Part shown: piece by piece, positions 26,123 to 57,010 of the stretch | Numbering within the stretch: the first letter of the stretch is position 1 | How the letters are laid out: each line of letters opens with the position of its first letter | Notes under the pieces: generated by a model | The model's input: only the letters and a program-made list of their open reading frames with translations | Told to the model about the DNA's origin: nothing | The model's database searches: none | Position numbers and translations under genes: made by a program | Assembly (NCBI GenBank): GCA_021383565.1 | Contig: CP079699.1 | Coordinates: 2,170,001 to 2,234,000 of the forward strand | DNA from: Levilactobacillus brevis | GTDB lineage: Bacteria > Bacillota > Bacilli > Lactobacillales > Lactobacillaceae | Reading direction: 5' to 3' | DNA length: 64,000 nt

Positions 26123-26510
26123 TGGTCCTCTGGCTCGGTTTAAAGAGATTAGCAAAATTCGCCAGTCTCCAAACTCGTCCCGCGCTGTAAGCTGATGCTC
26201 AGCTAACACCGCTGTCACGGCTACCTCCATCTCTGGCTACCTCCGGTTACGCTGGTTGAAAACCACTGATCGTGCGGTGACATCGCTGGTGTGGCAGCTT
26301 AATTGGATGCTCCTCATGTAGCCGTGAGTGAACCAAATTTGGTCTCAGCCGTGGGAGTTTCCAAGTGTTCTGCTTGGAAACTGGCGTCTTTGAGACGCGG
26401 GCTGACGGCTCAAAGCGAGGGAAAAGACCGCCCCTTGGCTTTTTCCGTCCTGCCCACCGCGATCCAGACCAAATTTGGCGAACGGTAAGGCGGCCAGTAT
26501 GCGACTATTA
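26123..26510 (+). repeat. Dispersed structured repeat, copy A
   Basis: About 390 bp of non-coding sequence that is the reverse complement of most of copy C (56581-57010) and shares its layout with copy B. Reading on plus: GCCAGTCTCCAA, GGCTACCTCC, GTAGCCGTGAGTGA, a hairpin AGTTTCCAAG/CTTGGAAACT (26356-26382), a hairpin GCGTCT/AGACGC (26384-26398), a hairpin GGGAAAAG/CTTTTTCC with loop ACCGCCCCTTGG (26419-26446), then the end GGCGAACGGTAAGGCGG. The outer CTGCCAG end seen in B and C is missing. Short frames inside it are not conserved and are not genes. Confidence 0.85.
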
Positions 26511-26568
26511 TAATGGATATTATTCTTGTCACATTACGGATTCTGGCTTTCAACCTTCAGTTGACCAC

Positions 26569-26602
26569 AAAAAAGTGGGTAACCTCACAGGATTACCCAC
26601 TT
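26569..26602 (-). terminator. Terminator of the alcohol dehydrogenase gene
   Basis: AAGTGGGTAA / TTACCCACTT stem followed by TTTTTTG on the minus strand. Confidence 0.9.
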
Positions 26603-26626
26603 CTCGAAGAATTTAAGCGTCAGTGT

Positions 26627-27751
26627 TTATTTGCCAGGAACGTAGTCTTCATCAATGATTAAGACTGGCTTGATCGTCTTCCCGGAAACAGAGTCAGCGT
26701 TGGCTTCGTTGATTTGACTGAACTTGTAGAACTTTTCAGTCTTTTGGTAATCAAACATGCCCAACTTGCTGAATTCAATCAACCGTGGAATATCAACTTG
26801 AGGAATGGAGTCCCCCATGTTAACCCCGATGACACTCTTGTCGTTGACACAGAGGTCGTTCCAGGTATCCAAGTCGATGTGATGGTTGGTAACGGCGATA
26901 GCTGCGGAAGTCCCACCTTGTGCCAAGGCACTGATGGAGTTAGAAATGACACTAGCCACACCAGTCGTATCCACGGCGTAGTTAACCCCGAAGCCACCAG
27001 TTAAGTCTTGAACGGCTTTGACGACATCGTCAACGTCATTGCTGTTGATGGTATCGGTAGCGCCGAGTTCCTTGGCCAATTTCAGCCGTGAGTCCACGAT
27101 ATCAATAGCGATAACCTTGGTGCAACCGGAAATCCGGCCGGCCATCATGGCAGCCAACCCAACGGCACCGGTCCCGAAGACGGCGATGGTGTCACCAGGC
27201 TTTGGCTTCAACGTGTTAAGAACGGTCCCAGAACCGGTAACGTAGCCACAACCCAGAGGCCCTAAGCCCCGTAAGTCGAGGTCCTTATCGACTTTAACGG
27301 CATTCCGTTCCCGAACAACCGTGGTTGAAGTGAAGGAACTTTGGTCGAACATGTCGGCCACGTCATGCCCATTTTCAGTGAAGTGCGCGGTCCCATCAGG
27401 ACGAACACCGGACAGGTTGTTGGCGGCGTAGTTTTCACATTGGGTTGGAATCCCCTTCAAACAGCTCTTGCAGTTCCCACAGCCGTAGAAACTCAGAACT
27501 ACGTGATCGCCAGGCTTGAATTGGGTAACTTCTGGGCCGACTTTTTCGACAATCCCAGAGCCTTCATGCCCTAAAAAAATTGGGTAGTCAATGACGGCAA
27601 CCCCGGTACGGAGCGCTTCATCGGAGTGGCAAATCCCACTGGCAACCATGTGGACTTGGATATCATCCGGGCCCATCTTAGCCAGTTCAACATCATCACG
27701 AATTTCAAAATCAGCATTTTGCTTATCAACAACTGCAGCTTTAATCTTCAT
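26627..27751 (-). CDS. Zinc-dependent alcohol dehydrogenase (aryl-alcohol type)
   Basis: A 374-residue class III-like/aryl-alcohol medium-chain dehydrogenase. The catalytic zinc residues are in GICHSDEALRTG, GHEGSGIVEKVG and GCGYVTGSG. The structural zinc loop is GCGNCKSCLKGIPTQC, and the cofactor loop is IAVFGTGAVGLAAMMAG followed by an Asp (VIAIDIV) that favours NAD. The start is the ATG after GAGGTG, four codons inside the longest frame. It is preceded by a perfect cre, and an aldehyde dehydrogenase gene lies immediately upstream, suggesting stepwise oxidation or reduction of an alcohol/aldehyde pair when glucose is exhausted. Confidence 0.93.
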   Translation of the reverse strand: MKIKAAVVDKQNADFEIRDDVELAKMGPDDIQVHMVASGICHSDEALRTGVAVIDYPIFLGHEGSGIVEKVGPEVTQFKPGDHVVLSFYGCGNCKSCLKGIPTQCENYAANNLSGVRPDGTAHFTENGHDVADMFDQSSFTSTTVVRERNAVKVDKDLDLRGLGPLGCGYVTGSGTVLNTLKPKPGDTIAVFGTGAVGLAAMMAGRISGCTKVIAIDIVDSRLKLAKELGATDTINSNDVDDVVKAVQDLTGGFGVNYAVDTTGVASVISNSISALAQGGTSAAIAVTNHHIDLDTWNDLCVNDKSVIGVNMGDSIPQVDIPRLIEFSKLGMFDYQKTEKFYKFSQINEANADSVSGKTIKPVLIIDEDYVPGK

Positions 27752-27820
27752 AATTATTGGCACCTCGGTTTAAAATTTTATGTCCTAATACATGTTAATT
27801 ATCACACACAATTCGGCTAA

Positions 27821-27834
27821 TGTAAACGCTTACA
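27821..27834. promoter_or_regulatory. cre site (CcpA) upstream of alcohol dehydrogenase
   Basis: TGTAAACGCTTACA fits the catabolite-responsive-element consensus TGNAANCGNWNNCA at every position. It lies 70 bp before the alcohol dehydrogenase start. Confidence 0.88.
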
Positions 27835-27947
27835 GAAAGATTACATTCCGTTGGTGTGACCAGAACCCTCACTGCGGCCAGCTTTACGGCCAGTTGCGGT
27901 CTTTTTATTCGCAGTGGGGATTCTGTAGTTGATTTCACAGTCACAGG

Positions 27948-27981
27948 AAAAAAGATAATTCTCCAGCGAATTATCTTTTTT
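27948..27981. terminator. Bidirectional terminator
   Basis: AAAAAAGATAATTC / GAATTATCTTTTTT perfect stem with a 6-nt loop; it ends the aldehyde dehydrogenase transcript. Confidence 0.93.
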
Positions 27982-27992
27982 CAACAGTATGA

Positions 27993-29468
27993 TTAGCCGT
28001 TGGCCTTTTCAGGATGGCCTTGCAGGTAGATAACGTGAGTGTTCAGGAATTCTTCAATCCCGTGCTTCCCGTCGTCACCGCCGATACCGGATTCCTTCCA
28101 GCCGGAGTGAGACCCGTTCATGGCTTCGAAGTTGAACCGGTTGATATACGTTTCACCATCTTCGAGTTCCTTGGATGCGCGCATTGCGTTGTCCAAGTTC
28201 TCGGTAAAGATGGAAGAGGTCAAACCGAAGTCGCTGTCGTTAGCCATTTCAATGGCATCATCCAACGTCTTGAAGGTCAAGACTGGCAGTACAGGACCAA
28301 AGATTTCGTCCTGAACGATTTCGGAGTCTTGCTTGACGTTGCTGATGACCGTTGGTTCGAAGAAGAAGCCCTTGGCAATCTTGACAACGTGCCCACCAGT
28401 TTCAAGCTTGCCACCGGCTTTAACGGCCCGGTCAACCATGCCAGATACCTTATCCAAGGCGGCTTGGTTAATCAGAGGACCCATACCGATATCTTCGTGC
28501 TTCATTGGATCGCCGACGGTAACTTCACCCATCTTGGTAGCCAATTTCTTCGTAAATTCATCGGCAATATCTTCTTGGACGTAAACCCGTTCACAGTTGT
28601 TGCAAAGTTGCCCGTTGTTGTCGACCCGTGAGTCAATGATGGATTGAACGGCCAAGTCAATGTCGGCATCCTTGCAGACAATAGCAGGGGCCTTACCACC
28701 GAGTTCCAGTGAAACCTTGGCCATGTGCGTAGCTGCCGCAGCCATGACCCGCTTCCCAGAGTTAACGGACCCGGTCAAACTGATAATCCCAATCTTCTTG
28801 TTTTTGGAAAGTTCATCACCGATAACGGCACCTGGTCCAGTGACAATGTTGACAACACCCTTAGGAATGCCGACCTTTTCACAGATCTTCCCGAATTCTA
28901 GACCTAAGTTAGGTGTATCGGTACTTGGCTTCATGACGATGGTGTTCCCAGTGACCAAAGCTGGCCCCATCTTCCGCGCGATCAGGAAGAATGGGAAGTT
29001 CCAAGGCAAGATGCCGGCAGCGACACCGATTGGTTGCTTATCAATCATGATGCTTTCGTTAGCGTTGTCGGATTGTAAGATTTCACCTTCGTAAGTCCGT
29101 GAAGCACTAGCCATGTAGTCGAAGTAGTCAGCGGAGAAGAGAATTTCGGTGGTGGCTAATGACTTAATCTTACCTTGTTCCTCTTGAAGCATTTCAATTA
29201 GGTGAGCGGAATCCTTCCGAATTTCGGTCGCGACATCATGTAAGTATTGGCCCCGGGTTGCGGCGGGAACCTTCTTCCAGGATTTTTGTGCTTCATAGGC
29301 GGCGTCAATGGCTTCCCGCGTCTCGTCTAGCGTTGCACTTGGAACGGTAGAGATGGGGGCACCAGTAGCTGGATTGATGACGGTGATCAGATTGCCGGAT
29401 GAAGAATCCTTGAATTCACCGTTAATGTACATTTGATAATGTTTTAATGCGACAGAGTTCTGTGTCAT
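27993..29468 (-). CDS. NAD-dependent aldehyde dehydrogenase, AldA-like
   Basis: A 491-residue aldehyde dehydrogenase. LPWNFPFFLIARKMGPALVTG is the substrate/cofactor entry, LTGSVNSGKRV the nucleotide-binding turn, VSLELGGKAP carries the general-base Glu, and GQLCNNCERVYV carries the catalytic Cys. The double-Cys arrangement is close to AldA-type lactaldehyde/glycolaldehyde dehydrogenases. The start is the ATG eight codons into the longest frame, after AAAGGAAG. A cre lies about 180 bp upstream. It would oxidise small aldehydes to acids with NAD, probably with the adjacent alcohol dehydrogenase. Confidence 0.92.
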   Translation of the reverse strand: MTQNSVALKHYQMYINGEFKDSSSGNLITVINPATGAPISTVPSATLDETREAIDAAYEAQKSWKKVPAATRGQYLHDVATEIRKDSAHLIEMLQEEQGKIKSLATTEILFSADYFDYMASASRTYEGEILQSDNANESIMIDKQPIGVAAGILPWNFPFFLIARKMGPALVTGNTIVMKPSTDTPNLGLEFGKICEKVGIPKGVVNIVTGPGAVIGDELSKNKKIGIISLTGSVNSGKRVMAAAATHMAKVSLELGGKAPAIVCKDADIDLAVQSIIDSRVDNNGQLCNNCERVYVQEDIADEFTKKLATKMGEVTVGDPMKHEDIGMGPLINQAALDKVSGMVDRAVKAGGKLETGGHVVKIAKGFFFEPTVISNVKQDSEIVQDEIFGPVLPVLTFKTLDDAIEMANDSDFGLTSSIFTENLDNAMRASKELEDGETYINRFNFEAMNGSHSGWKESGIGGDDGKHGIEEFLNTHVIYLQGHPEKANG

Positions 29469-29645
29469 AATGCGAAATACTTCCTTTCCCAATTATCATT
29501 GGTCAATGTTTAAACATCAGAATAAATCTGGGTAGTAAACGAAAAAATATCACAGATTGTTACAATATGAGCAAAACATAATCAAAACTAAACACGCGTA
29601 TTTATTTGATTACTCAACATTGTTATAATTCATTTTTATCGAGAT

Positions 29646-29659
29646 TGCAAACGCATTCA
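29646..29659. promoter_or_regulatory. cre site upstream of aldehyde dehydrogenase
   Basis: TGCAAACGCATTCA matches the cre consensus fully. Confidence 0.75.
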
Positions 29660-29664
29660 CAATA

Positions 29665-29731
29665 AAACGCCCGGTAATCGCCCGATAAAAATCACGAAAG
29701 GTCAAGGGCGACTAATGCCGAGCGATTTTTT
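29665..29731 (-). terminator. Terminator of the SDR gene
   Basis: Two stacked stems, CGCCCGG/CCGAGCG outside and TCGCCC/GGGCGA inside. TTTTATT follows on the minus strand, and a T-run also follows on plus. Confidence 0.75.
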
Positions 29732-29766
29732 AAAGATTTGCAACAAACTTTCTAAACTAAATTGAA

Positions 29767-30564
29767 TTAGACGGGATCGTGATCCGCTAAAAATTCCGGA
29801 TGATTCTGAATAAAGGTTGCTGCGCGCGGGTGTGCCGCTAAGAAAGCCTGAAATTTTTGGGGGTCGGCCGTTAATTGGCGAAGTTGATCAAATTCTGAGG
29901 GGGAGTTAGCGGTGGTACCGGGATAGAAAATCTCCGCGGTACTGCGCGTATTAACGGCTTTTACGTAGACTTGAGCGACGTTAGCGGGGCGCATGGCTTC
30001 ATTCATGTCGGCGATGCCTTGAAGGGTAATCAATCCCACGTACGTGTTGGTTCCCTGAAGGTCATCGGCGAGGGACAGGGCGTAACTTCGCAGGGCGGCC
30101 TTGGTCAATGACAGGGTCGTCGTGGTCTTGTCGGGATGGAGCGCCGCACCGCCACCGGTAAAAAGAATGTTCCGGGGGATATCGGTGGGTGCGAGCTCGA
30201 GAAATTGGCGGCTAGCAGTGATGGCGCCGAGGACGTTGGCGTCGAAACGTTGGCTGATCGTTTCCGTTGGTGTGGTTAAGGGCCCATCCAACGTGGTATC
30301 GGCAACGTTATAAACGAGGGTCTGGGGATGGTCGAACTGCCGGGTGACCTGCTGAAACATATGCGCTGTTTCTTGCGGCTTAGTCGCGTCCGCGGCAATC
30401 CAATCGGCGGCCAGTCCCGCGGTGTGGAGCTGTTCCGTCATCGTTTGGAGCTTCTGTGCATTCCGAGCGACCAATATAGGATGGTGGCCGGCTTGACTGA
30501 AGGCCCGTGCAATCGCGAGTCCGAAGCCAGAGCCGGCACCGAGGACAATTACGGTTTTTGTCAT
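29767..30564 (-). CDS. SDR-fold protein lacking the catalytic Tyr
   Basis: A 265-residue short-chain-dehydrogenase-fold protein. The cofactor turn VIVLGAGSGFGLAIARAF and VARNAQ are normal, but the segment that should hold Y-x-x-x-K reads LSLTKAALRSYA, with Leu at the Tyr position, and the catalytic-Ser strand reads ILFTGGGAALHP without Ser. NNAG is replaced by VYNVADT. It therefore may bind NAD(P) without classical SDR chemistry, or belong to a divergent subgroup. The start is the ATG after TTGGAGGT. It is a single-gene unit between two catabolic genes and a repeat copy. Confidence 0.82.
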   Translation of the reverse strand: MTKTVIVLGAGSGFGLAIARAFSQAGHHPILVARNAQKLQTMTEQLHTAGLAADWIAADATKPQETAHMFQQVTRQFDHPQTLVYNVADTTLDGPLTTPTETISQRFDANVLGAITASRQFLELAPTDIPRNILFTGGGAALHPDKTTTTLSLTKAALRSYALSLADDLQGTNTYVGLITLQGIADMNEAMRPANVAQVYVKAVNTRSTAEIFYPGTTANSPSEFDQLRQLTADPQKFQAFLAAHPRAATFIQNHPEFLADHDPV

Positions 30565-30791
30565 AACTTGTGGTACCTCCAATAGGTGAGTAATCAGGGG
30601 GAAAACTTGTGTGAAACCTATTCACCTGAGCCTACCATACCAGCTTGCCGGTGGCATCACAAAGAAAGGGCTTACTAAATCGCGAATTCGTTGCATCACC
30701 GAATTAAATACACACCAAATAAGACCTGCCCGCAGTTAGCGACAGGTCTTATTATTGATGGTCCTTTAGAAGTTAGCAGTGTGGCCGTGGT

Positions 30792-31267
30792 CGCCTTACC
30801 GTTGGTGGGTTCGCCTGCGGCTGCCAGGGACTCCGCCTGCTGTGGGACCGGTAAAAGCCATAGGGCGGTCTTTTACCTCGACTTGAAGTCTTGCCCAAAC
30901 CGCAAGTCTCCAAGATCGTCCAGTGAAGTAAGCTGCCTGAGAAACAGCAACTAACTTCACGTGCACGGCTGGCTCCATCCCTGGCCTCCTCCGGCTAAGC
31001 GCAACGGAGCTAACGAGAGTAATGCACACAACTTAATGGTGACAATTGCCTAGTACCACGCAAATTGTCAATACCAGTCGACCGTAGCCGTGAGTGAGCC
31101 ACATCTGGACTCAGCCGGAGCATCTATAACTGGTGGGGTTACCAGTCATAGATGGGTGTCTTGGAAACGCCGGTTCTTGGTGGTTCCAAGCGAGGAGTGA
31201 GACCGTTTCTTAGGCTCGCTCCGATCCTTCCCCAGCGTTCCAGCCCAGACTTTGGCGAACAGTCGGG
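30792..31267 (+). repeat. Dispersed structured repeat, copy B (diverged)
   Basis: About 475 bp with the same landmarks as copies A and C, in the order CGCCTTACCGTT, GCGGCTGCCAG, AAGTCTCCAA, GGCTGGCTCC, GTAGCCGTGAGTGAGCCA, then hairpins and TTTGGCGAACAGTCGG. The sequence differs greatly, but hairpins occupy equivalent places: CATCTATAACTGGT/ACCAGTCATAGATG (31121-31154), GGTGT/ACGCC (31155-31171) and GAGTGAG/CTCGCTC with loop ACCGTTTCTTAGG (31195-31221). A mirror-image hairpin GGTAAAAG/CTTTTACC with loop ACCGCCCTATGG lies at the left end on the minus strand (30850-30877), so the ends are inverted repeats. Confidence 0.8.
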
Positions 31268-31279
31268 TATAGTTAAAGC

Positions 31280-31978
31280 TTACTTGATATGCTCGTTGGT
31301 GATGGCTTCGATGTCAGCCTTGGCAATCTTAGCCATGTGCTTCTTGAGGTGCTTGACGTCATTTCTGTTGGTGATGAAGCCGGATTCGACCAGACTGTAG
31401 TCGATTCCGCGCCGACGTAAGACGTTGCAATTCCGCAGGTTGGTCCGGTAGCTGTAGCCGTTGTAGGCCCTGTTCAGGCCGACATACTTCTTGATTACTT
31501 TAGCCAGACGCTTGTCCCGTTTCGTCGGGTGCTTCTTGTGAATGATGACGTGACCACCGTGACCGGCTGGGGCGTCCAGGTGGAACATGATGACCGTGGT
31601 CTTCTTGTTAATCTTGTATGACCCCTTGTGGTGGTAGAGGGTATCGCTGACCAGGTTCTTCTTGGGATTGTAGAACGTGATGGTGCTACCCTTAACCTTC
31701 TTGGCGTATTTCCGTAATTGCGGGAGCATGTGCTTTCGTAAGAACGTGGCCTCCGTCGTCCCATTGCCCCGGGCACCGGGATCTCCGGCACCGTGACCCA
31801 TGACGATGAGGTAGTGTTTCTTGGCCTTGGGTTTAGCCTTAGCTTTGGCTTTCTTCGCCGTTTTAGACGTGGTCGTCTTGCTAGCGGCGTTGGCGGTAGT
31901 GACCGTCGTGGTGGCCAGTGCTAAAGGCAAAAGTAGCATGAGGCCGGCCACAAAACCAAATTTCCAATGATGTTTCAT
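31280..31978 (-). CDS. Secreted N-acetylmuramoyl-L-alanine amidase (Amidase_3)
   Basis: A 232-residue cell-wall hydrolase. A signal peptide (residues 1-32, cut near TANAA) is followed by a Lys/Ala-rich linker and an Amidase_3 zinc domain. Zinc ligands and catalytic residues are visible: His in LIVMGHGAGDPG, Glu in GTTEATFLRK, His in VIMFHLDAP and Glu in SLVESGFITN. It would cut the amide between N-acetylmuramic acid and the stem peptide. There is no separate wall-binding repeat; the basic linker may serve. AAGGAG lies 9 bp before the ATG. Its 3' end abuts repeat copy B. Confidence 0.88.
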   Translation of the reverse strand: MKHHWKFGFVAGLMLLLPLALATTTVTTANAASKTTTSKTAKKAKAKAKPKAKKHYLIVMGHGAGDPGARGNGTTEATFLRKHMLPQLRKYAKKVKGSTITFYNPKKNLVSDTLYHHKGSYKINKKTTVIMFHLDAPAGHGGHVIIHKKHPTKRDKRLAKVIKKYVGLNRAYNGYSYRTNLRNCNVLRRRGIDYSLVESGFITNRNDVKHLKKHMAKIAKADIEAITNEHIK

Positions 31979-32283
31979 CCGAATCGACTCCTTATGTAGG
32001 CTAGTTAACGCCTTTAATCTTACGCCAAACGCGTGAAATAAGGTAGTCTGTCTTGCAATAAAAAGGAATTATACAAGAGATGGTGTGTCTGCAGTCGGTG
32101 ATTGGGTGCGTAAAATTCAGGGCTTCCAGGGGTTGAACTAAAAGAAAGTTGCAGAGAGAAAAGCATAATACAAGATATCCCTCATTAATAGTTGAAAGCG
32201 GTTCACATTTTTACTCGCCTTACACGTTTGCTACGCTATTAATGATGTAAAGCAATAGCAATGAGGAGGAACTTGGCACGTCA
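31979..32283. other. Intergenic leader of the Mor-like gene
   Basis: No gene is recognised. TTGAAAGCGGTTCACA near 32191 looks like a cre but has the final CA shifted. ATGAGGAGG precedes the next start. Confidence 0.35.
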
Positions 32284-32526
32284 ATGGATTTATTACAGGA
32301 GTCGTACGCTCAGCCGTATGGATTGCTGGGGGAATATTTAACGGAAAAGGTGTATGAATTGTATCGGGGACGGCAGATCTCATTTCCCATGCGCCTCTAT
32401 AACCGCGATAAGGTGGCGGAGTACGATGGCCACAACCTGGCGGAACTCACACGCAAATACGATTATTCCCAGCGCTGGGTGCGGCAGATGATTCAGGCGG
32501 ATCGCGAGGCACGGAAACGTAAGTGA
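32284..32526 (+). CDS. Mor transcription activator family protein
   Basis: An 80-residue protein resembling the C-terminal DNA-binding half of the phage Mu middle-operon activator Mor/C family. The region GLLGEYLTEKVYELYRGRQISFPMRLYN is the dimerisation part, and NLAELTRKYDYSQRWVRQMIQADR is the helix-turn-helix. The start is ATG after GAGGAGGAAC with spacing on the long side. No prophage genes are near, so it is either a domesticated phage activator or a host family common in lactobacilli. Targets are unknown. Confidence 0.82.
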   Translation: MDLLQESYAQPYGLLGEYLTEKVYELYRGRQISFPMRLYNRDKVAEYDGHNLAELTRKYDYSQRWVRQMIQADREARKRK

Positions 32527-32569
32527 GGTGTGTCGCGGGAAATGTAACGTTGGTTTAGTCGGAGCAAAA

Positions 32570-32610
32570 ATAAGCGCCCGTCCCGAGGCAACTCGAGGCA
32601 GGCGTTTATT
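32570..32610 (+). terminator. Terminator after the Mor-like gene
   Basis: ATAAGCGCC / GGCGTTTAT outer stem with an inner CCGAG/CTCGAGG, ending in TTATTT. Confidence 0.75.
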
Positions 32611-32640
32611 TGGGTTCCACAGGCGTGGGGCTATGGAAAG

Positions 32641-32674
32641 AAAAAACGCCGCAGCTACTGAGTGGTAGCGGCGA
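32641..32674 (-). terminator. Terminator of the DUF2798 gene
   Basis: GCCGCTAC / GTAGC-T-GCGGC stem, followed by TTTTTT on the minus strand. Confidence 0.85.
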
Positions 32675-32686
32675 CGTTTAGTTAGG

Positions 32687-33193: not shown

Positions 33194-33317
33194 TGTGTTG
33201 CTCCTCGTTTGTATTTCCCACGAGTTGTTAGCATACCATGTTTATTTTCATTTTGTAAGGCTTATTTTGAAAATAAATGAAAAGAACGCTTACTTGGTCA
33301 CGAAACCTAGTAGATGA

Positions 33318-46235: not shown

Positions 46236-46249
46236 ACCAACCTGAAGGT

Positions 46250-46365
46250 TAAAAGTTCGCAAACATACGCCAGTCTCCGACTGACAATGCCTAATCGCCA
46301 TTAAACGAGTTAGTGCCCACCACCTGTGGCTGCCAGAGATTCCGGCGCTGTGGTGACCTGGACTT
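46250..46365 (+). repeat. Partial dispersed repeat overlapping a gene end
   Basis: ACGCCAGTCTCCGACTG and CCACCTGTGGCTGCCAG, AGATTCCGGCGCTGTGGTGA match the outer end of the full repeat, with the interior deleted. It runs into the 3' end of the next gene and encodes its last dozen residues. Confidence 0.7.
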
Positions 46366-49727: not shown

Positions 49728-49754
49728 TGAAATTTTCCTCCTCGCGGAACTGAC

Positions 49755-49812: not shown

Positions 49813-49892
49813 GCATTTAGGCTTCGGGCGTGGTGGTGTGGTAGTTGCGGCCAACAATCAATCAAGCAACGAGTTGTCAGCTATTTAAACCA

Positions 49893-49905
49893 TATCCGAA
49901 TTTAA
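49893..49905. promoter_or_regulatory. Possible PurBox
   Basis: ATATCCGAATTTA fits AWWWCCGAACWWT except one base, upstream of the purine permease. An inverted TTCG 26 bp on is too far for the usual paired spacing. Confidence 0.3.
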
Positions 49906-50023
49906 TGACAATTTTTATATCAAATATTCGCTTATTTGGAAATAAAACTAGACTTCATAACAACCATCCCGTATGATTAGGAGGAAATGCGAATAAACCG
50001 TTTCTAATGGGGAGGAAATGATT

Positions 50024-51100
50024 ATGCACTGGATCGCCGATTTGTTAGCGGCCATCGGAGTCGTCTTAAACGGCATTCCACAGGGAATCATGGCAATGTC
50101 GCTCGGTTTTGCAATTTTTCCAACGATGTTTTCTTTTATTTTTGCGTCGGCGGTCAATGGGGCCTTTGGCGCCGTAGCACCGTTGTCGTTTCAGGCCGAG
50201 TCGCTGGCACTGACGGGGAAGCTGGGGCGTAACTTACGTGAGCGAACCTCGATTATTTTAGGCGGGTCCATTGTGATGCTTCTGATCGGGGTCACCGGGA
50301 CGCTGACAAAGATTGTTGCTGTCCTGGGTAACGGCATCATGGCGGGGATGATGGCTGGTGTAGGCATCATGCTAGCTAAGATTGCACTGGGGATGGCCAA
50401 GGAGGAACAGCTCACGGGATGGTTGTCGGTGGCGCTGGCTGCCGTTACCTACCTGATTACCAAGGACTTGGTGTGGACCATCGTGATTTCGGTGGTGGGC
50501 TCGAGTCTGGCGGCCGTCCTGGGTCAGCACTACAGAGCGGAGCTGCCAGCCCACGTGACCGCTCGCCGGTTTGTCTTCACCAAGCCAATGATTAGCGTTC
50601 GCGTGGTACGTGGGGCACTCAGTCTGGCGTGCTTAAACATTGGCGCCAACATTTCTTACGGGTTGATTACCGGCCAGATGACCGGTCAGAAGCCCAATCC
50701 GGTCAACCTGAACCTGTTAACGATTACTCAGTCCATTGCCGATATGGGGACTAGTTTACTGGGTGGGGCACCGGTCGAAGCGATCATCTCGGCGACGGCC
50801 AGTGCGCCTGAACCCGTGGTGGCCGGTATCATGATGATGCTAATTATGGCGGCCATTCTAGCGATTGGTTGGTTGCCTAAGCTGGGGAAATACGTGCCTA
50901 GCGCCTCAATTGCGGGATTCCTGTTCATTCTGGGAGCGGTCGTCATTTTTCCGGTCAATGCCGGGCTGGCGCTTCAGGGCTCCACGGCCACGATTGCGGC
51001 GATTACACTGGTGATTACGGCGGTTGCCGATCCATTCGCGGGGTTACTCGCCGGCGCCGTGTTGAAATTCTGTTTGCCACTCTTAGGGCTGGGGGTCTAA
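50024..51100 (+). CDS. NCS2-type nucleobase permease
   Basis: A 358-residue membrane protein with about 10-12 helices resembling the NCS2/AzgA-like nucleobase transporters. Recognisable are FPTMFSFIFASAVNGAFGAVAPLSFQAESL early, MAGVGIMLAKIALGMA centrally and ADMGTSLLGGAPVEAIISATASAPEPV, the motif region around the substrate-binding residues of helices 8-10. It is shorter than typical members (about 430). Directly followed by a phosphoribosyltransferase, it likely imports adenine or another purine. ATG 50024 lies 8 bp after GGGGAGG. Confidence 0.85.
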   Translation: MHWIADLLAAIGVVLNGIPQGIMAMSLGFAIFPTMFSFIFASAVNGAFGAVAPLSFQAESLALTGKLGRNLRERTSIILGGSIVMLLIGVTGTLTKIVAVLGNGIMAGMMAGVGIMLAKIALGMAKEEQLTGWLSVALAAVTYLITKDLVWTIVISVVGSSLAAVLGQHYRAELPAHVTARRFVFTKPMISVRVVRGALSLACLNIGANISYGLITGQMTGQKPNPVNLNLLTITQSIADMGTSLLGGAPVEAIISATASAPEPVVAGIMMMLIMAAILAIGWLPKLGKYVPSASIAGFLFILGAVVIFPVNAGLALQGSTATIAAITLVITAVADPFAGLLAGAVLKFCLPLLGLGV

Positions 51101-51103
51101 CCA

Positions 51104-51646
51104 ATGAAAACTTTTGAACTTCAAGTGGGACCGTTGACACGGCGATTGCCGATTTTGCCGATTAACGAGACCACGGCGATTGCGTCGTTCGTCTTGTTAG
51201 GGGATGCGGAGCTGACGGATTATGCGGCGCAAGCGTTGGCACAACGCGTACCGGCGAACTTTGACTATTTCGTCACGCTAGAGAGTAAGGGGATTCCGTT
51301 GGCGCAGGAGCTCAGTCGGGTGACGGATCATCCGCAATTCGTAGTGCTCCGGAAGAACGTGAAAGATTACATGGTGGCGCCCTTAACGGTACCGGTCAAG
51401 GCAATCACCACGAGTGCGCCGCAGCAATTGGTACTCGATGGCACTGATGCGGATCGGTTGGTAGCTAAGCGAGTCGTGATCGTGGACGATGTCATTAGTA
51501 GTGGGGGCTCACTGACGGCGGCCAAGACGCTGTTGGAAAAAGCCGGTGCCACGGTCGTGGGTCAGATGGCGATCTTAGCGGAGGGCGAGGCCGTTAGTCG
51601 GCAGGATATTGACTTTTTGGCGGAATTGCCGTTGTTTTCGCGGTAG
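51104..51646 (+). CDS. Adenine phosphoribosyltransferase-like protein
   Basis: A 180-residue type I phosphoribosyltransferase. The PRPP-binding motif is RVVIVDDVISSGGSLTAAKTLL at about residues 125-146, preceded by FDYFVTLESKGIPLAQELSRV (flexible-loop and substrate side) and VVLRKNVKDYM, close to adenine phosphoribosyltransferases. It would convert an imported base plus PRPP into a nucleotide. The 3-bp gap to the permease indicates a two-gene uptake and salvage operon. Confidence 0.88.
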   Translation: MKTFELQVGPLTRRLPILPINETTAIASFVLLGDAELTDYAAQALAQRVPANFDYFVTLESKGIPLAQELSRVTDHPQFVVLRKNVKDYMVAPLTVPVKAITTSAPQQLVLDGTDADRLVAKRVVIVDDVISSGGSLTAAKTLLEKAGATVVGQMAILAEGEAVSRQDIDFLAELPLFSR

Positions 51647-51694
51647 GCATAGATGCCTAGCCATTGCGACTCATAAAGGAAGTAAGCACAAAAT

Positions 51695-51740
51695 AGGCCC
51701 CAACCGCGCGCACTTCAAGCGCTGGTTGAGGCCTGTTTCT
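51695..51740 (+). terminator. Terminator of the purine salvage operon
   Basis: AGGCC-C-CAACC / GGTTG-A-GGCCT stem followed by GTTTCTT. Confidence 0.8.
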
Positions 51741-51787
51741 TCTATATATAACGGATTTTATAAATCAATCGTTTAGCTAGTCACTAA

Positions 51788-53431
51788 TTACTTAGCGATG
51801 TAAGTCGTCTTGAAATCGTAAGGCACGCCGGCACCGTTATAAACAATGCTTTTGACGTTGCTACGTAACAACTGCGACTTGGCTGCTTGATACAGCGGGA
51901 TCGTGCCTTGATCGTTGATTAAGACCTTTTCAGCCTTGACGAGCTTGGCCCAACGAGTGGTTGGCTGGTTCCCGTCTTGATTTTCGGCTTCGTCGAGGAG
52001 CTTGTCGAATTCACTGCTCTTCCAGCCGGTCGTGTTATAGCTGGAGTCGGATTCGAAGACATCGAGGAAATTAATTGGGTCGGCGAAGACGGATTGCCAG
52101 CCGGCGAGGGTCAATTCGTAATTCCCATTGTTTTGTTGGGTGATCAGCTGAACGTAAGGCACCGTCTTGATGGTAATCTTGACGTTTGGCAACTTCTCCA
52201 ATGAGCTTTGTAGAAATTCGGCGGTCTGCTTGTTAGTGTCAGTATCGGAAACGGACAGGGTGACGTTGAGTTGCTTATCACCGGTCTGCTTCAGCCCCTT
52301 GGCCAGTAAGCTCTTGGCTTGCTTGAGGTTGTACGAAACACCGGATTTGACGTAAGCCTCTTGGTTGAAGGCTTCACCGGTCTTGGGATTGTTGCCCATG
52401 CCGGCGGGAACGAAGCCCTTGGAAGCAACAGAACCATCCTGTAAGACGTCATTGACCAGTTGGTTGCGGTCGATGGCTAAGGAGAGGGCCTTGCGGACGT
52501 TGACGTTCTTGAAGGCTGGGACCTTCTTTTGGTTTAAATCCAACCGTTGAGAACCGGTGGGAAGACGCTTAACGAAGTCCTTGCTGTTCTTGTTGTTCTT
52601 AATCTGTTGGCCGCTGAGGAGCGTTTCATCGGTCTTCTTGGCATTGTAGAGATTGTAGCTGGTCGTTGTGGACTCGGTGACCTGTTCGTTAATCTTAGTC
52701 AGATGAACGGCTTTCTTATCCCAGTAGGTCTGGTTCTTGGCTAGCGTCCAGCTCTTGCCAGTACCGTTCCACTTAGTCAGCCGGAATGGGCCGTTGTAAA
52801 CGGTCGTGGCTGAGCTGGTCCCATACTTCTTGCCGTACTGATCCACAGCCTTTTGGTTCAGCGGGTAGAAGAGTGGCCAAGCCAGCAGTTTCTTGAAGTA
52901 GGAGACGGGCTTCGTCAGTTGAACGGTCAGTTTGTATTTGCCATCGGCCTTGATGCCTAGGGCGTTGAGCGGTTGCTTGCCCTTGTTGACGGCCTCGGCG
53001 TTCTTGACCTGATAGAGGTAGAAGGCATCCTGTGAAGCCGTCTTTGGGTTCAGCGTACGTTGCCAGGAGTAAACAAAGTCCTTGGCCGTCACCGGTTGAC
53101 CGTTGGACCATTTGGCATTCTGCCGTAGCTTGAAGGTGTAGGTTTTGCCGCCGTTGGTGACTTTGGTGCTGGTGGCCAGGGCGTTAGCCGGCGTGCCCTT
53201 AGCGTTGAGGCGGTAGAGGCCCTCTTGCGTGTTCTGTAAAACGGTAAAGCTCAACGTGTCGGTGGCCTGTGCGAGATCGGAAGAGGCTAGTTCGGAAGAC
53301 TCAGTCCAGTTCAACTCCTGTTTGGCGGCGTACTTGCCACTACTGTTACTCGTGCTGGCTTGGCTGCCGCAACCCGCTAACGTTAAGAGGCTGAGTGCAG
53401 TAAGTGTTAAAATCGTTCCTTTTTTCTTCAT
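51788..53431 (-). CDS. Oligopeptide ABC transporter substrate-binding lipoprotein (OppA-like)
   Basis: A 547-residue SBP family 5 lipoprotein. The lipobox LTLAGCGSQ at about residues 16-24 marks lipid anchoring at the Cys. WSNGQPVTAKDFVYSWQRTLNPKT, YNGPFRLTKWNGTG and LTLAGWQSVFADPINFLDVF match the peptide-binding fold and align throughout with the other OppA-like protein at 23413. It captures peptides outside the cell for import. A T-box leader controls it. No permease or ATPase genes adjoin, so it must share a transporter encoded elsewhere. Confidence 0.94.
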   Translation of the reverse strand: MKKKGTILTLTALSLLTLAGCGSQASTSNSSGKYAAKQELNWTESSELASSDLAQATDTLSFTVLQNTQEGLYRLNAKGTPANALATSTKVTNGGKTYTFKLRQNAKWSNGQPVTAKDFVYSWQRTLNPKTASQDAFYLYQVKNAEAVNKGKQPLNALGIKADGKYKLTVQLTKPVSYFKKLLAWPLFYPLNQKAVDQYGKKYGTSSATTVYNGPFRLTKWNGTGKSWTLAKNQTYWDKKAVHLTKINEQVTESTTTSYNLYNAKKTDETLLSGQQIKNNKNSKDFVKRLPTGSQRLDLNQKKVPAFKNVNVRKALSLAIDRNQLVNDVLQDGSVASKGFVPAGMGNNPKTGEAFNQEAYVKSGVSYNLKQAKSLLAKGLKQTGDKQLNVTLSVSDTDTNKQTAEFLQSSLEKLPNVKITIKTVPYVQLITQQNNGNYELTLAGWQSVFADPINFLDVFESDSSYNTTGWKSSEFDKLLDEAENQDGNQPTTRWAKLVKAEKVLINDQGTIPLYQAAKSQLLRSNVKSIVYNGAGVPYDFKTTYIAK

Positions 53432-53451
53432 CCCAAAACATCTCCTCAAAT

Positions 53452-53735
53452 AAAAATCGTCCTTATGTACTTGCTACATAAGGACGATTTCACTCGCGGT
53501 GCCACCTTGTTTTATGCTGGACTCACGCCCACCATCTCCGTAACTTCTGTTGCCAAAAGTCGGAAGCGGTAACGGGCTTCAAATCGAACAACCAGCTTGC
53601 ACCAATTGTCAGCTACCAGGCTCATCTTCGCGGTTCCGTTGTAAGCCACCTTTTCAGCTACCGGTGGTCTCTGAACTTAGCGGGAACGGCTACTCTTCCT
53701 GGCGATGCGTTCATGGGTTTTTAACTTGGTTCTCA
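53452..53735 (-). promoter_or_regulatory. T-box riboswitch upstream of oppA-like lipoprotein gene
   Basis: On the minus strand, CAAGGTGGCACCGCG is followed by terminator AAATCGTCCTTATGTA / TACATAAGGACGATTT with T-run. Stem I shows AGAGTAG (S-turn side), an AGAGA bulge and a CCACC/GGTGG distal hairpin, then GGAACCGCGAAGATG on the 3' side. In my reading CGC (Arg) falls in the specifier slot, but this is uncertain. Confidence 0.93.
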
Positions 53736-53763
53736 TACTAAGCGTTGGCGGCGGGGATGTCAA
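53735..53763 (-). promoter_or_regulatory. Promoter of the second T-box/oppA transcript
   Basis: TTGACA-17 bp-TAGTAT on the minus strand at the start of the leader. Confidence 0.75.
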
Positions 53764-53896
53764 TAGAAAAATAACAAGAGAGTTCCTAGTTGATATAACG
53801 CAGATTGTGGCCGTATATAGAAGAAATCATGACTGGAATCGTCTAAATATTAATATATTTATCATCACATTCACATTATTTTTGCGAATTTATCGG

Positions 53897-53945
53897 CCGA
53901 AAAAAGCCGCAAAACAAGTCCCTCATAGAGAGCATGTTTTGCGGC
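53897..53945 (-). terminator. Terminator of the EAL gene
   Basis: GCCGCAAAACA / TGTTTTGCGGC stem followed by TTTTTTC on the minus strand. Confidence 0.9.
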
Positions 53946-53978
53946 CAAATTAAGTCCTCGTATTCAATTTAAAACGGT

Positions 53979-54638
53979 TTAAACTGCCGCGTACGGCACC
54001 GGCTTGCTGTAATAGTAGCCTTGGGTCATCCCAACGTTATATTGCTGAGCCAACGCAACATCACCCTTATCTTCGATGCCTTCGAGGGTGAAGCCAAGTT
54101 GGTAGTTGTCGGCGATCTTACGCCAGAAGTTGAGGCTCTTCATCATCTCGTTTTGCCGGTGTTGGAACCGGAAATTTTGCATGGCGAACTTGATGCTGTC
54201 CATGAAGGGGAGGACGTCTTGAACGGCCTGCGACCAAGGATTGTCCGTACCCACGTCATCCAGACTCAACTTGATATCGAACGCCCGGTAGAGGGCCACG
54301 TAACGGTGGAGTTCCTCTAGCGACGGTGCCTCCGTCAATTCAACGATGAGGTTTAAATTCTTCACTGATTTTTTCAAATGAATGAGATGGCCGATGGTCC
54401 GGCTGTCGACGAACTGTTCACGGTTTAAGTTCAACGAAATCTCGGGGTTATCGCGATGGTCTTTTAAAATGCTCGTGATCTCCTGATAGGATAATAAAAC
54501 CTGCTGGTCCATTGGTAGCGCAGTAAAATCAGTAGGCGTTACCCAATAGTCATGGCAAGATGACCGTAATAATAATTCATAGCCAGCTAACTTTTGCGTT
54601 GCCGCATTGATCTGCGGTTGGACGAAGAATCGATACAT
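53979..54638 (-). CDS. EAL-domain protein (c-di-GMP phosphodiesterase candidate)
   Basis: A 219-residue stand-alone EAL domain. Expected metal and catalytic positions appear in order: Glu in GYELLLRS (the EAL/ELL motif), Asn in SLNLNREQF, Glu in LIVELTEAP, the Asp pair in LSLDDVGTDNP, Lys in DSIKFAMQ, Glu in TLEGIED and Gln in TQGYYYSKP. It could therefore hydrolyse cyclic di-GMP, though the shortened length (usually about 240) and the ELL variant leave doubt. No sensor, membrane segment or GGDEF partner is in the window. Confidence 0.85.
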   Translation of the reverse strand: MYRFFVQPQINAATQKLAGYELLLRSSCHDYWVTPTDFTALPMDQQVLLSYQEITSILKDHRDNPEISLNLNREQFVDSRTIGHLIHLKKSVKNLNLIVELTEAPSLEELHRYVALYRAFDIKLSLDDVGTDNPWSQAVQDVLPFMDSIKFAMQNFRFQHRQNEMMKSLNFWRKIADNYQLGFTLEGIEDKGDVALAQQYNVGMTQGYYYSKPVPYAAV

Positions 54639-54796
54639 TTTAAAAGAAAATCCCCTTTCTTATCTGCGAGCGCATTTGATAATATCGTTTATTATACCCC
54701 ATCACTCAACTAATTTATAGCCCTAATGGTGTAGGAGAGTGGCAATTTAACACTCCAAATTTCCAATATCGTCCGCTAAATGATTATGTTAACGCT

Positions 54797-55324
54797 TTAA
54801 TCAGCTAAATTCAATTCATACGCTCGCCGGGCATTATCGCCGGGCTCCGCAACGTGGACGATTCCCCGGAATTGATAGCCGAGACTGAGGGCAATGGCCT
54901 GCATGCGTTGATTCATTTGGTGGGTGTCGATCCGGAAGTTACGGATCCCCGCTTGATAAGCCGTGCTAATCAGATTGGAGAAGAAGTAGTGGCTGAGGTG
55001 TTGGCCGGCGAAGTCCTTGCTTAACGCGATCCGATGAATGGTGGCGTAGGGCTCCTGATTGTTTTGCCAGCCGGCGCCCGTAATCTCGTGATAGTTGGCG
55101 TCGTCGCCCACAACTTGGGCCGCGGTACCCGCTATCCGGTTATCGACCATCAATACCCAACTTTGCTGGGCCATGATATCGCGGCGAATAGCGGCCTCAT
55201 CGGGATAACCATCTTGCCACTGCGGGCTGCCATCCGCCTTCAATAAAGCCTTAGCATCCGCAATAATCGCCATGATGGCTGGTACATCAACTTTGGTAGC
55301 GTGTCGTAAATAAACTAAACTCAT
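54797..55324 (-). CDS. GNAT family N-acetyltransferase (paralogue 1)
   Basis: A 175-residue GNAT enzyme. MSLVYLRHATKVDVPAIMAIIADAKALLKADG is the N-terminal strand-helix, SPQWQDGYPDEAAI a family-specific block, and HRIALSKDFAGQHLSHYFFSNL the acetyl-CoA motif with the Q/G-x-H variant loop. The start is the ATG 7 bp after GGAGG, 32 codons inside the longest frame. The gene at 57146 is a close relative of the same length. The substrate is unknown. Confidence 0.9.
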   Translation of the reverse strand: MSLVYLRHATKVDVPAIMAIIADAKALLKADGSPQWQDGYPDEAAIRRDIMAQQSWVLMVDNRIAGTAAQVVGDDANYHEITGAGWQNNQEPYATIHRIALSKDFAGQHLSHYFFSNLISTAYQAGIRNFRIDTHQMNQRMQAIALSLGYQFRGIVHVAEPGDNARRAYELNLAD

Positions 55325-55537
55325 CAGTCGTCCTCCAATGTATTTAAATTTAACTTCTAGAATACCACTTTCTGCCGGTAGATTGGCGAATCTTTTAGCA
55401 GCCGTCTGTGCACAGTTCATTTGGATTGAGAACCACCAACCGCGGGACTTTTTACCAGAATTTTGGTAAATTTGAGGGAACGAGACTTCTCAGGCGCGCG
55501 TCGGCTGAAGAGGTCACCAGAAAAGGAGTAGACTGAC

Positions 55538-56545
55538 ATGGTAAAAATTACGGCATACGGCGTCCGTGAACTGGAGGAGCCGTACTTCAATCGCCTAAAT
55601 ACCGCGGGTTTTACGTTGAAATTTGTTCGCGACTTATTGACCCATGAGAACGTGACGGCGGCCGCCGGGACCGACGCCGTCCTGGTGCGGGGAAACTGCG
55701 TTGTCGACCGGCAAAATCTACAACAGTTTGCGGATTGGGGCATTAAGGCGGTTTTTACGCGATCGGTAGGGGTCAACCATTTGGACTTGCAGGCGGCCAG
55801 CGAGTTGGGCATCACGGTGGCGCGAGTTCCCGGATACTCACCGTTTGCCGTGGCCGAATTGGCCTTTACCCTGGGGATGACGCTGTTTCGGCACGTTAAT
55901 CTTGCCGTTGATCAGACCCGCCAGGCCGACTTTACGATTGGCAATGCCCTTTTCAGCAAGGAAATCCACACGGCAACGGTGGGCATCGTGGGGGTCGGGC
56001 GAATTGGCTTGGCGGAAGCACAACTCTATCAGGGTTTAGGTGCACACGTGGTGGGCTACGATCGCCGGCCATCCGCGACGGCAAACGAACGCGTTGAGTT
56101 AGTCACATTGCCGGATTTACTGGCGCAGAGCGATATTGTCTCACTACATGTGCCCTACTTACCGGGTCAAAACGATGATCTAATCAACTCGGCCTTTATC
56201 GCCCAAATGAAAGCGGGTGCCGTACTGGTGAACACGGCGCGCGGGGAGCTAGCCAATGTAGACGCCATTTTAGCCGGCTTGACGAGTGGCCAACTCAGCG
56301 GCTATGGCACCGATGTCTTTCGCGGTGAAACAACGATGTTGGGCCAATCGTACGGCAGTCTGGCCGAAGTTCCCAATCCGGAAGTTCGGCAGTTATTGGC
56401 GGCGTATCCGCGCGTACTGGTCACGCCACACGTGGGGTCCTACACGGAACCGGCGTTGGAAGACATGATTCGCATGAGCTTCGACAATTTCCGCGACTTC
56501 TTCGCCACCGGTCACACAGCTAATGAGGTCCGGGTGGAATCATAA
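55538..56545 (+). CDS. D-2-hydroxyacid dehydrogenase (D-lactate dehydrogenase family)
   Basis: A 335-residue D-isomer-specific 2-hydroxyacid dehydrogenase. The NAD motif is VGIVGVGRIG at about residues 147-156, followed by an Asp (VVGYDRRP). The catalytic Arg is in VNTARGELANVD, the Glu in DVFRGETT and the His in VTPHVGSYTEP. It resembles D-lactate/D-2-hydroxyisocaproate dehydrogenases, reducing 2-keto acids with NADH. Start ATG with AAAAGGAG upstream. Whether it makes D-lactate or branched 2-hydroxy acids cannot be settled by sequence alone. Confidence 0.92.
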   Translation: MVKITAYGVRELEEPYFNRLNTAGFTLKFVRDLLTHENVTAAAGTDAVLVRGNCVVDRQNLQQFADWGIKAVFTRSVGVNHLDLQAASELGITVARVPGYSPFAVAELAFTLGMTLFRHVNLAVDQTRQADFTIGNALFSKEIHTATVGIVGVGRIGLAEAQLYQGLGAHVVGYDRRPSATANERVELVTLPDLLAQSDIVSLHVPYLPGQNDDLINSAFIAQMKAGAVLVNTARGELANVDAILAGLTSGQLSGYGTDVFRGETTMLGQSYGSLAEVPNPEVRQLLAAYPRVLVTPHVGSYTEPALEDMIRMSFDNFRDFFATGHTANEVRVES

Positions 56546-56580
56546 ACGCGTTGATCCGGCTGTCGATAGTGGCCGCCTTA

Positions 56581-57010
56581 CCGCCTTACCGTTCGCCAAA
56601 TTTGGTCTGGATCGCGGTGGGCAGGACGGGCCAAGCCAAAGGGCGGTCTTGTCCCTCGCTTCGAGCCGAAAGCCCGCGTCTCAAAGACGCCATTTTCCAA
56701 GTAGAACACTTGGAAAATCCCACGGCTGAGACCAAATTTGACTCACTCACGGCTACACTACTGAAGATAATCAACTAGGGTAGTGATCTCAGCAAAATTT
56801 GCGTCAGTTTGGCTGTTAACCACTCACCGTAACCGGAGGTAGCCAGAGATGGAGGGCGGTGTTAGCTAACGTCCTGAGTCGGCTTACAGCGCGGGACGTG
56901 TTTGGAGACTGGCGAATTTTGCTAGGCTTCAAACCGAGCCAGAGGACCGTTTCTCAGGCCGCAGGCGGTCCCCACAGCGCCGGAATCTCTGGCAGCCGTA
57001 GGTGGTATTG
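56581..57010 (-). repeat. Dispersed structured repeat, copy C (most complete)
   Basis: About 430 bp of non-coding sequence, reverse complement of copy A over more than 300 bp. One end reads CCTTACCGTTCGCCAAATTT, the other GCGCCGGAATCTCT-GGCAGCC. On the minus strand, in the same order as A and B: ATTTTCCAAG/CTTGGAAAAT (56692-56718), GCGTCT/AGACGC (56676-56690) and GGGACAAG/CTTGGCCC with loop ACCGCCCTTTGG (56628-56655). The other end carries a mirror-image imperfect hairpin around ACCGTTTCTCAGG. It lies between a dehydrogenase and an acetyltransferase gene. Confidence 0.87.

What the first reader, a model, noticed from the sequence alone, without database searches (positions are those of the whole stretch)
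26123..57010. Dispersed non-coding repeat with hairpins kept by compensatory changes
Seen: three copies (26123-26510, 30792-31267, 56581-57010) plus end fragments at 19758, 23366, 46250 and 63583. Copy B has diverged strongly from A and C, yet three hairpins keep the same order and place. The third stem reads GGGAAAAG/CTTTTTCC in A, GGGACAAG/CTTGGCCC in C and GAGTGAG/CTCGCTC in B, all around a loop of type ACCGYYY..TTGG. The first stem is AGTTTCC/GGAAACT in A and ATTTTCC/GGAAAAT in C, a G-C to T-A swap, and an unrelated 14-bp stem in B. Copy B also carries the loop hairpin inverted at its other end. Inference: either a MITE-like element mobilised in trans and selected for folded ends, or a structured RNA family.
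Basis: partly seen in the sequence, partly recalled or inferred. Interest (0 to 1): 0.78.

Follow-up and report, generated by a model that had tools for sequence, protein, structure and literature searches.

The report
Paired folded repeats in lactobacilli
The window holds copies of a small non-coding mobile element, present in many copies in this lactic acid bacterium and in related genera, whose core is two back-to-back copies of one intricately folded domain; the fold has been kept while the sequence changed, and no RNA family that was searched matched it.

Summary
Copies A, B and C each carry two homologous domains (about 165-185 nt; closing stem plus three hairpins), back to back. A covariance model finds 126 matches in this genome (36 adjacent pairs divergent, 1 tandem, 0 convergent) and matches in 34 of 161 sampled genomes of the family (8 of 40 genera). 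Compensatory changes are massive: 37 of 50 pairs in 45 Levilactobacillus sequences; covariation score 0.402 versus 0.170 shuffled and at most 0.084 slid. Rfam 15 gave no match in the window or in 20 other loci. In Levilactobacillus the pair lies inside an element of about 570-645 nt with terminal repeats CTRAAGGTTGAAAG and 7-8-nt target duplications, often just beyond intrinsic terminators; two of eight sites tested lack it in relatives. In this genome rare one-sided stem changes look neutral (G-U:A-C 59:49), common ones keep pairing (49:4); this suggests, without proving it, selection during propagation rather than on each inserted copy. No transposase with these ends was found. Whether RNA or single-stranded DNA folds, and why, is unsettled.

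The parts
26097..26249 (-). Copy A, module 2 (truncated)
   Evidence: CM R1 26097-26238, 62.7 bits; nhmmer 26116-26249
26314..26496 (+).
   Evidence: CM R1 26335-26475, 44.8 bits; nhmmer 26314-26496
26547..26560 (-). Copy A terminal inverted repeat CTTTCAACCTTCAG
   Evidence: script search; consensus matches 26548-26116
30789..30998 (-). Copy B, module 2 type
   Evidence: CM R1 30823-30986, 139.1 bits; nhmmer 30789-30998
31083..31265 (+). Copy B, module 1 type, diverged
   Evidence: CM R1 31103-31249, 47.3 bits; nhmmer 31083-31265
56580..56757 (-). Copy C, module 1
   Evidence: CM R1 56599-56739, 44.3 bits; nhmmer
56830..57004 (+). Copy C, module 2
   Evidence: CM R1 56831-56993, 128.9 bits; nhmmer
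56758..56829 (.). Copy C, linker between the two divergent modules; over the family no promoter excess upstream of modules
19735..19799 (-). Fragment: outer end of a module 2 (consensus 488-552)
   Evidence: blastn 97%
23361..23404 (+). Fragment: outer end of a module 1 (consensus 78-121)
   Evidence: blastn 84%
46242..46358 (-). Fragment: module 2 outer end with terminal repeat 46242-46255 (consensus 487-601)
63539..63665 (+). Deletion derivative: terminal repeat 63539-63552, consensus 21-129 joined to 562-595

Best explanation
A family of non-autonomous, MITE-like mobile elements. Its core is two homologous, divergently oriented domains of about 165-185 nt, each a closing stem (P1, then P2 around AGCYGUG/CACMGC) enclosing three hairpins, joined by a linker of tens to hundreds of nt. 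In Levilactobacillus the pair is the interior of an element of about 600 nt with terminal repeats CTRAAGGTTGAAAG that makes 7-8-nt target duplications, often right behind intrinsic terminators (shown). It is probably moved in trans by a DDE-type transposase (inferred from TIR plus TSD; no enzyme found). The fold is kept by compensatory changes (shown), with a lean towards one strand. The selection probably acts while source copies propagate, i.e. folding helps an element to be copied, inserted or tolerated, rather than on each inserted copy for the host (inferred from near-neutral rare stem changes, lack of promoter excess and of orientation bias).
For: Covariation: 37 of 50 pairs doubly changed in 45 Levilactobacillus sequences, 96.1% of cells paired; 44 of 50 pairs and score 0.610 vs 0.180 shuffled in 70 matches mostly from other genera. 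Divergence of adjacent modules: 36 divergent, 1 tandem, 0 convergent in this genome; 58, 8, 0 in other loci. TSDs: 8 of 21 perfect (7 or 8 nt) vs about 0.4 expected, 12 of 20 in G003. Two of eight insertion sites found without the element in relatives. Terminator-like hairpin and T-run within 21 nt in 14 of 21, vs 14.2% of matched positions within 25 nt; 10 of 20 within 25 nt in G003. 0 of 129 clusters inside an ORF over 900 nt, 47 of 115 between convergent genes. Rare one-sided stem changes G-U:A-C 59:49, common 49:4; singletons 40:28 vs common 63:14 over 7 groups.
Against: No transposase flanked by these repeats: among the 100 of 120 listed end sites of G000 only two pairs lie 0.7-4 kb apart; one is an IS3-type insertion into the repeat (L040), the other encloses housekeeping genes. 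For G003 (100 of 138 sites listed) and G022 (50 of 85) I saw none by eye; G030 and G031 sites were not listed. The terminal repeats were not seen in the other genera examined, so the core may move otherwise there. In G003 even singleton changes are rarer in paired sites (0.006-0.009) than in the linker (0.026), which could mean selection after insertion; in group G133 common changes run against the rule (G-U 7, A-C 10). Several intergenic regions hold a copy in more than one species. Terminators are near-symmetric: 12 of 21 also score when read away from the element. TIR-bounded copies were found by searching for the TIR, so its constancy is no evidence.
Confidence: 0.58

Rival explanations
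1. A host-functional structured RNA family: each copy is a regulatory or RNA-processing element in transcripts that read past a gene's terminator, spread by transposition and then retained because it works.
For: RNA-like covariation; excess of G-U over A-C on one strand (153:46 in A2, a set aligned to a sense-strand model; 29:11 and 19:7 in non-own rows on pairs predicted in both senses); insertion behind terminators; paired sites slower even among singletons in G003.
Against: Promoter-like sites upstream no more frequent than in shuffled sequence, and T-runs 3' of modules rarer than A-runs, 24 vs 43 of 195 (no shuffled control for the runs); solo modules between codirectional genes 13 sense, 17 antisense; rare stem changes near neutral in G000; an orthologous copy lost much of a module (L179 vs L187); many truncated copies and fragments.
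Confidence: 0.2
2. A REPIN-like element: two inverted structured ends recognised as folded single-stranded DNA by a HUH-type (RAYT/IS200-like) enzyme; the terminal repeats are a later acquisition in Levilactobacillus.
For: Divergent pairs with variable linkers and solo units; strand preference of the fold; core present in other genera without the Levilactobacillus terminal repeats.
Against: 7-8-nt target duplications and terminal repeats fit a DDE enzyme; among 667 module-adjacent ORFs of 280 loci, clusters printed with at least 3 loci were mostly ordinary genes, with one ISL3-type transposase group in 3 loci; no strand bias of solos in the own genome, 28 + and 25 -. Presence of RAYT-type genes was not tested.
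Confidence: 0.15
3. Double-stranded DNA function (cruciform or protein-binding site, e.g. chromosome organisation), with no single-strand preference.
For: In G003 both senses fold about equally well for module 1 (-143.9 vs -141.9); in the own-genome module-1 set the senses differ little (-46.3 vs -42.9) and pairs common to both senses have G-U 14, A-C 11.
Against: In the other sets one sense folds much better, e.g. -50.6 vs -36.0 and -46.4 vs -24.2 for all rows; wobble asymmetry; conserved loop and junction sequences beyond the stems.
Confidence: 0.05

Closest known systems
BOX, RUP and SPRITE repeats of Streptococcus pneumoniae (PMC3049150, 12 passages seen, part of the abstract among them)
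   Same: Small interspersed structured repeats of a Lactobacillales genome; BOX modular, 67-637 bp; BOX and RUP with TIR and TSD; enriched between convergent genes; proposed to be non-autonomous parasites.
   Different: Here the unit is one homologous cloverleaf-like domain in divergent pairs, with covariation across 8 genera; the paper reports its repeats at reduced frequency in S. [quoted passage not shown] Sequence comparison with BOX was not run.
Bacterial MITEs in general, e.g. QMITE2 of Coxiella (PMC10969869, three passages seen)
   Same: TIR, 7-9-nt direct repeats, no coding capacity, structured transcripts, intergenic.
   Different: Terminal repeat only about 14 nt, interior with two copies of a deeply conserved fold; no IS with the same ends found.
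EFAR repeats of Enterococcus faecalis (recalled; no text found)
   Same: Structured miniature insertion sequences, recalled as inserting at stem-loop sequences.
   Different: Recalled as an assembly of many sequence types without such a conserved domain; no sequence was compared.
REPIN/BIME elements moved by RAYT (recalled)
   Same: Inverted pairs of structured units with variable spacer, plus solo units.
   Different: REPs are recalled as about 20-40 nt; here 165-185-nt domains, with TIR and TSD in one genus.

Membership tests
MITE | terminal inverted repeats | tested here: met
   CTRAAGGTTGAAAG-type ends (up to 2 mismatches) on 21 elements in G000 and 20 in G003, all found by searching for them; by alignment the homology of copies ends there
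MITE | target site duplication | tested here: met
   8 of 21 perfect 7-8 nt vs about 0.4 by shuffling; 12 of 20 in G003
MITE | no coding capacity | tested here: met
   no frame open in more than 22 of 45 module-2 sequences; lengths 13, 16 and 16 in the three classes modulo 3
MITE | related autonomous element with the same ends | tested here: inconclusive
   none among the listed end sites of G000, G003 and G022; lists were cut. A parent may be lost or elsewhere
Rfam RNA families (release 15) | match at gathering score | tested here: not met
   window: only a T-box leader outside the repeat; 20 other loci: 0; L010 at E<=5: only SNORA84 over a module, 19.2 bits against a gathering score of 45
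structured RNA | covariation beyond shuffled and slid controls | tested here: met
   the shuffles do not keep relatedness, the slid controls do
structured RNA | transcribed | not testable with these tools
   no expression data; no promoter excess
REPIN | two inverted structured units | tested here: met
REPIN | RAYT-type HUH transposase as partner | not tested
   only module-adjacent ORFs were clustered
BOX | boxA/boxB/boxC modules | not tested
   BOX sequences were not compared

The most novel reading that the evidence does not exclude
A family-wide class of bacterial selfish element in which a cloverleaf-like folded strand, set in back-to-back pairs, is itself the signal needed for propagation: an RNA- or ssDNA-fold-dependent mobile element that has swapped its outer vehicle between genera while keeping the fold.
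Probability: 0.22. Interest if true: 0.86.

Novelty: new variant of a known kind. Interest (0 to 1): 0.66.

Why it matters
Bacterial interspersed repeats are often set aside as hairpin-rich junk. Here is one whose fold is supported by hundreds of compensatory changes, in many copies per genome and in several genera of lactic acid bacteria, with a sharp architectural rule (adjacent modules diverge and were never seen to converge) and a sharp site preference (behind terminators). It gives a tractable system to ask why a mobile element needs a large folded domain; Rfam 15, the RNA library searched here, does not hold it.

Tried and rejected
Known RNA family: Rfam at gathering score on the window and 20 loci, and E<=5 on one locus, gave nothing for the modules but a sub-threshold SNORA84 hit. 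Coding gene: rejected. Own promoter: no excess over shuffled sequence. Cis function in the mRNA of the upstream gene: no orientation bias of solos. Autonomous IS with the same ends: two end pairs 0.7-4 kb apart among the listed sites of G000 were an IS3-type insertion into the repeat (L040, PF00665 and PF01527) and housekeeping genes with TilS, phosphoribosyltransferase and FtsH domains. An ISL3-type transposase (PF01610) lies beside a fragment at L067, and ORFs of its blast cluster are near modules in L007 and L235; at L067 only one end repeat is in the locus, so it is not bracketed there, and it was not followed further. Plasmid or phage copies: none with the G000 query in both collections, none in plasmids with queries from G030 and G003. 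Shared intergenic sites as proof of in-situ selection: inconclusive; 41 locus pairs share two neighbours, but in L138 and L158 the flanks hardly align, and a limited number of safe intergenic regions makes repeat use likely. Single-sequence comparison of module 1 with module 2 of this genome is not significant; their homology rests on profiles and the model. Papers: searches listed no paper that by title and start of abstract treats this repeat in lactobacilli; passages were looked up in PMC3049150, PMC10969869 and PMC2267715, the last of no use here. This is no proof of absence, since subscription papers are missing.
Full report
CHECK OF THE OBSERVATION. A DNA search of the window's own genome (G000, 2.68 Mb) with copy C returned 47 places at E<=0.001 with 40 of 159 candidates scored. 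Aligned and oriented, the better copies run from CTRAAGGTTGAAAG to its complement, 572-639 nt in the ten longest of 12 TIR-to-TIR copies; other copies keep module 1 and the ends but lack much of module 2 (e.g. L025, L042, L047, L054, L058, L059). The TIR-to-TIR consensus is 601 nt.

ANATOMY. The conserved core has two parts: module 1 (consensus about 83-262, folding best when read on the minus strand) and module 2 (about 339-525, plus strand), separated by a linker that is poorly conserved between species. Consensus-like sequences of both fold far better than shuffled sequence (z -6.75; z -4.59). Iterated profiles cross-match the two modules in the same inverted arrangement. Pairwise, the two modules of this genome are not significantly similar, but a covariance model (R1) built from 45 module-2 sequences finds the three module-1 copies of the window with 44-47 bits.

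COVARIATION. RNAalifold on alignment A1 (45 sequences, all Levilactobacillus genomes) predicts 50 pairs; 37 have at least one double compensatory change. Named-structure counts: 96.1% of 2201 cells paired versus 83.2% shuffled; score 0.402 versus 0.170; slid versions at most 0.084. On A2 (70 model matches, 57 from other genera, aligned by the model and including five weak matches on the wrong strand) 44 of 50 pairs change on both sides and the score is 0.610 versus 0.180 shuffled and at most 0.102 slid. Over all rows folding of the chosen sense is better than of the opposite sense (-50.6 vs -36.0 for module 1, -46.4 vs -24.2 for module 2), but little better for module 1 of the own genome (-46.3 vs -42.9). 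On pairs predicted in both senses the non-own rows have G-U 19 vs A-C 7 (module 1) and 29 vs 11 (module 2); the own rows 14 vs 11 and 17 vs 6. On A2 the counts are 153 vs 46 (biased towards the modelled sense). In G003 the preference is weak.

COPY NUMBER, ARRANGEMENT, RANGE. R1 finds 126 matches at E<=0.001 in G000 (150 of 709 candidates scored; some matches are partial). Among neighbours with starts less than 660 nt apart 36 are divergent, 1 tandem, 0 convergent; 53 modules have no such neighbour. In 61 of the 120 named 8-kb loci (80 of them listed) and in 43 loci of other genomes adjacent modules within 600 nt are 58 divergent, 8 tandem, 0 convergent; some of these are the same or orthologous places (e.g. 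L179 and L294). By DNA, 28 of 35 genomes of the genus match at E<=0.001, some very weakly. By model, 34 of 161 genomes drawn from the family match at E<=1e-4, in 8 of 40 genera; in 15 of the 34 all 17 scored candidates match. Of 295 drawn from the order, 13 match; 12 belong to the same family and one is marginal (9e-5). No match in plasmids (three queries) or phages (one query).

MOBILITY. In 21 TIR-bounded copies of G000 the flanks repeat 7 or 8 nt perfectly in 8 (shuffled expectation about 0.4), and six more miss one position. In G003, twenty elements were picked as opposed end repeats from the listed sites; the 13 long ones are 615-644 nt with mean pairwise identity 0.864, and 12 of 20 have perfect 7- or 8-nt duplications. 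Joined flanks of eight insertions were sought in 12 genomes. For the L008 site G022 and G003 give one match across the junction; for the L047 site G022, G028, G004 and G023 do; the other six sites gave one-sided or split matches. At the L008 site the G022 alignment shows the same terminator followed directly by the next gene; for the L047 site the intergenic part aligns poorly except in G022. Insertions lie next to terminator-like structures: 14 of 21 within 21 nt, against 10.9% of random intergenic and 14.2% of TTA-type intergenic positions within 25 nt (binomial p 6e-8). Read away from the element 12 of 21 also score, as expected of near-symmetric terminators. In G003 it is 10 of 20 within 25 nt (the control was made on G000). 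This may be target choice or survival. By eye, decayed end repeats are visible at two L. cerevisiae copies (L130, L165). In a comparison of the outer flanks of divergent pairs the G000-type repeat appeared only at L127; one pair of another genus, L299, has a different 15-nt inverted match.

CONTEXT AND FUNCTION. Of 129 module clusters none lies inside an ORF over 900 nt; of 115 with both neighbours close, 47 are between convergent genes, 59 between codirectional and 9 between divergent ones (84, 271 and 68 of 423 adjacent gene pairs in the same loci, a rough background that includes operon pairs and a crude gene caller). Solo modules between codirectional genes are 13 sense, 17 antisense. Promoter-like sites upstream are about as frequent as in shuffled sequence (23 vs 19.8 of 195) or rarer (5 vs 11.6 of 144). 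So a standard stand-alone sRNA gene or an orientation-bound 3'-UTR element is unlikely.

WHERE SELECTION ACTS. In G000, one-sided changes in stems carried by at most three copies are G-U 59 and A-C 49, close to the 1:1 that I take as the neutral expectation, whereas changes carried by more copies are 49 and 4. Over seven groups with at least eight copies (10 smaller groups dropped; non-own hits under 85 bits left out) singletons are 40:28, changes in 2-3 copies 56:22, commoner ones 63:14; group G133 alone goes the other way among common ones, 7:10. I read this as neutral decay after insertion and selection on the lineages that propagate. Against this, in G003 singleton changes are 0.006-0.009 per site in stems but 0.021-0.026 in linker and outer parts, which fits either prior selection in unsampled sister copies or selection after insertion. 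The cells are not independent, so the ratios are indications.

MECHANISM. Shown: mobile behaviour in the past, ends, site association, conserved fold, divergent pairing. Inferred: trans mobilisation by a DDE enzyme, and that folding aids propagation. Open: RNA or ssDNA. The divergent arrangement means that a transcript crossing from either side leaves the element through a sense-oriented module; this would make the element symmetric towards read-through transcription from both neighbours and would suit its place between convergent genes, but the lack of orientation bias of solos speaks against a strong cis effect.

COMPARISON WITH THE KNOWN. It works like BOX/RUP (PMC3049150, passages seen): parasitic, structured, intergenic, enriched between convergent genes. 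The divergent pairs recall REPINs and the site choice recalls EFAR (both recalled). No membership beyond 'MITE-like' is claimed, because no autonomous partner was found and BOX, EFAR and RAYT tests were not run. Rfam 15 gave no match. Paper searches listed nothing on it.

Noticed in passing
window 25181-25431 (-) and 53479-53508: A T-box leader (Rfam RF00230, 93.2 bits) lies upstream of the 551-aa ORF 23413-25068 (-); the partly repeated 553-aa ORF 51788-53449 (-) has the same GGTGCCACC-type 30-nt repeat upstream, suggesting a second, weaker T-box.
   Followed up: no
window 3114-4844: Likely tandem duplication of about 943 nt: ORFs of 125 and 112 aa appear twice in the same order (3114-3491, 3563-3901 and 4057-4434, 4506-4844); judged from ORF positions only.
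   Followed up: no
L040 1652-3342: An IS3-type insertion sequence (ORFs of 225 and 297 aa, PF01527 and PF00665) sits inside a copy of the repeat; consensus 125-129 is duplicated.
   Followed up: partly
L067 1543-2802 (-): An ISL3-type transposase gene (PF01610) next to a truncated copy of the repeat; ISL3 elements are recalled as making 8-nt duplications, so a link to the mobiliser could be tested.
   Followed up: partly
L147 2031-3329 (L. cerevisiae): Five modules in 1.3 kb, two of them equal-scoring tandem copies 35 nt apart: local amplification of modules.
   Followed up: no
L179 2843-3550 and L187 5580-6170: Orthologous pair in L. lindianensis and L. paucivorans: one has lost much of one module, and hairpin 2 of the other module differs by a whole compensated swap, perhaps gene conversion.
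   Followed up: partly
outer part upstream of module 1, G000 copies (consensus about 58-65): ATTATAAT recurs in many copies without a matching -35 element; meaning unknown.
   Followed up: partly
G168:C1:87125-87501 and 196076-197324 (genus g20): Modules in same-direction series, an arrangement that is rare elsewhere (8 of 66 adjacent pairs).
   Followed up: no
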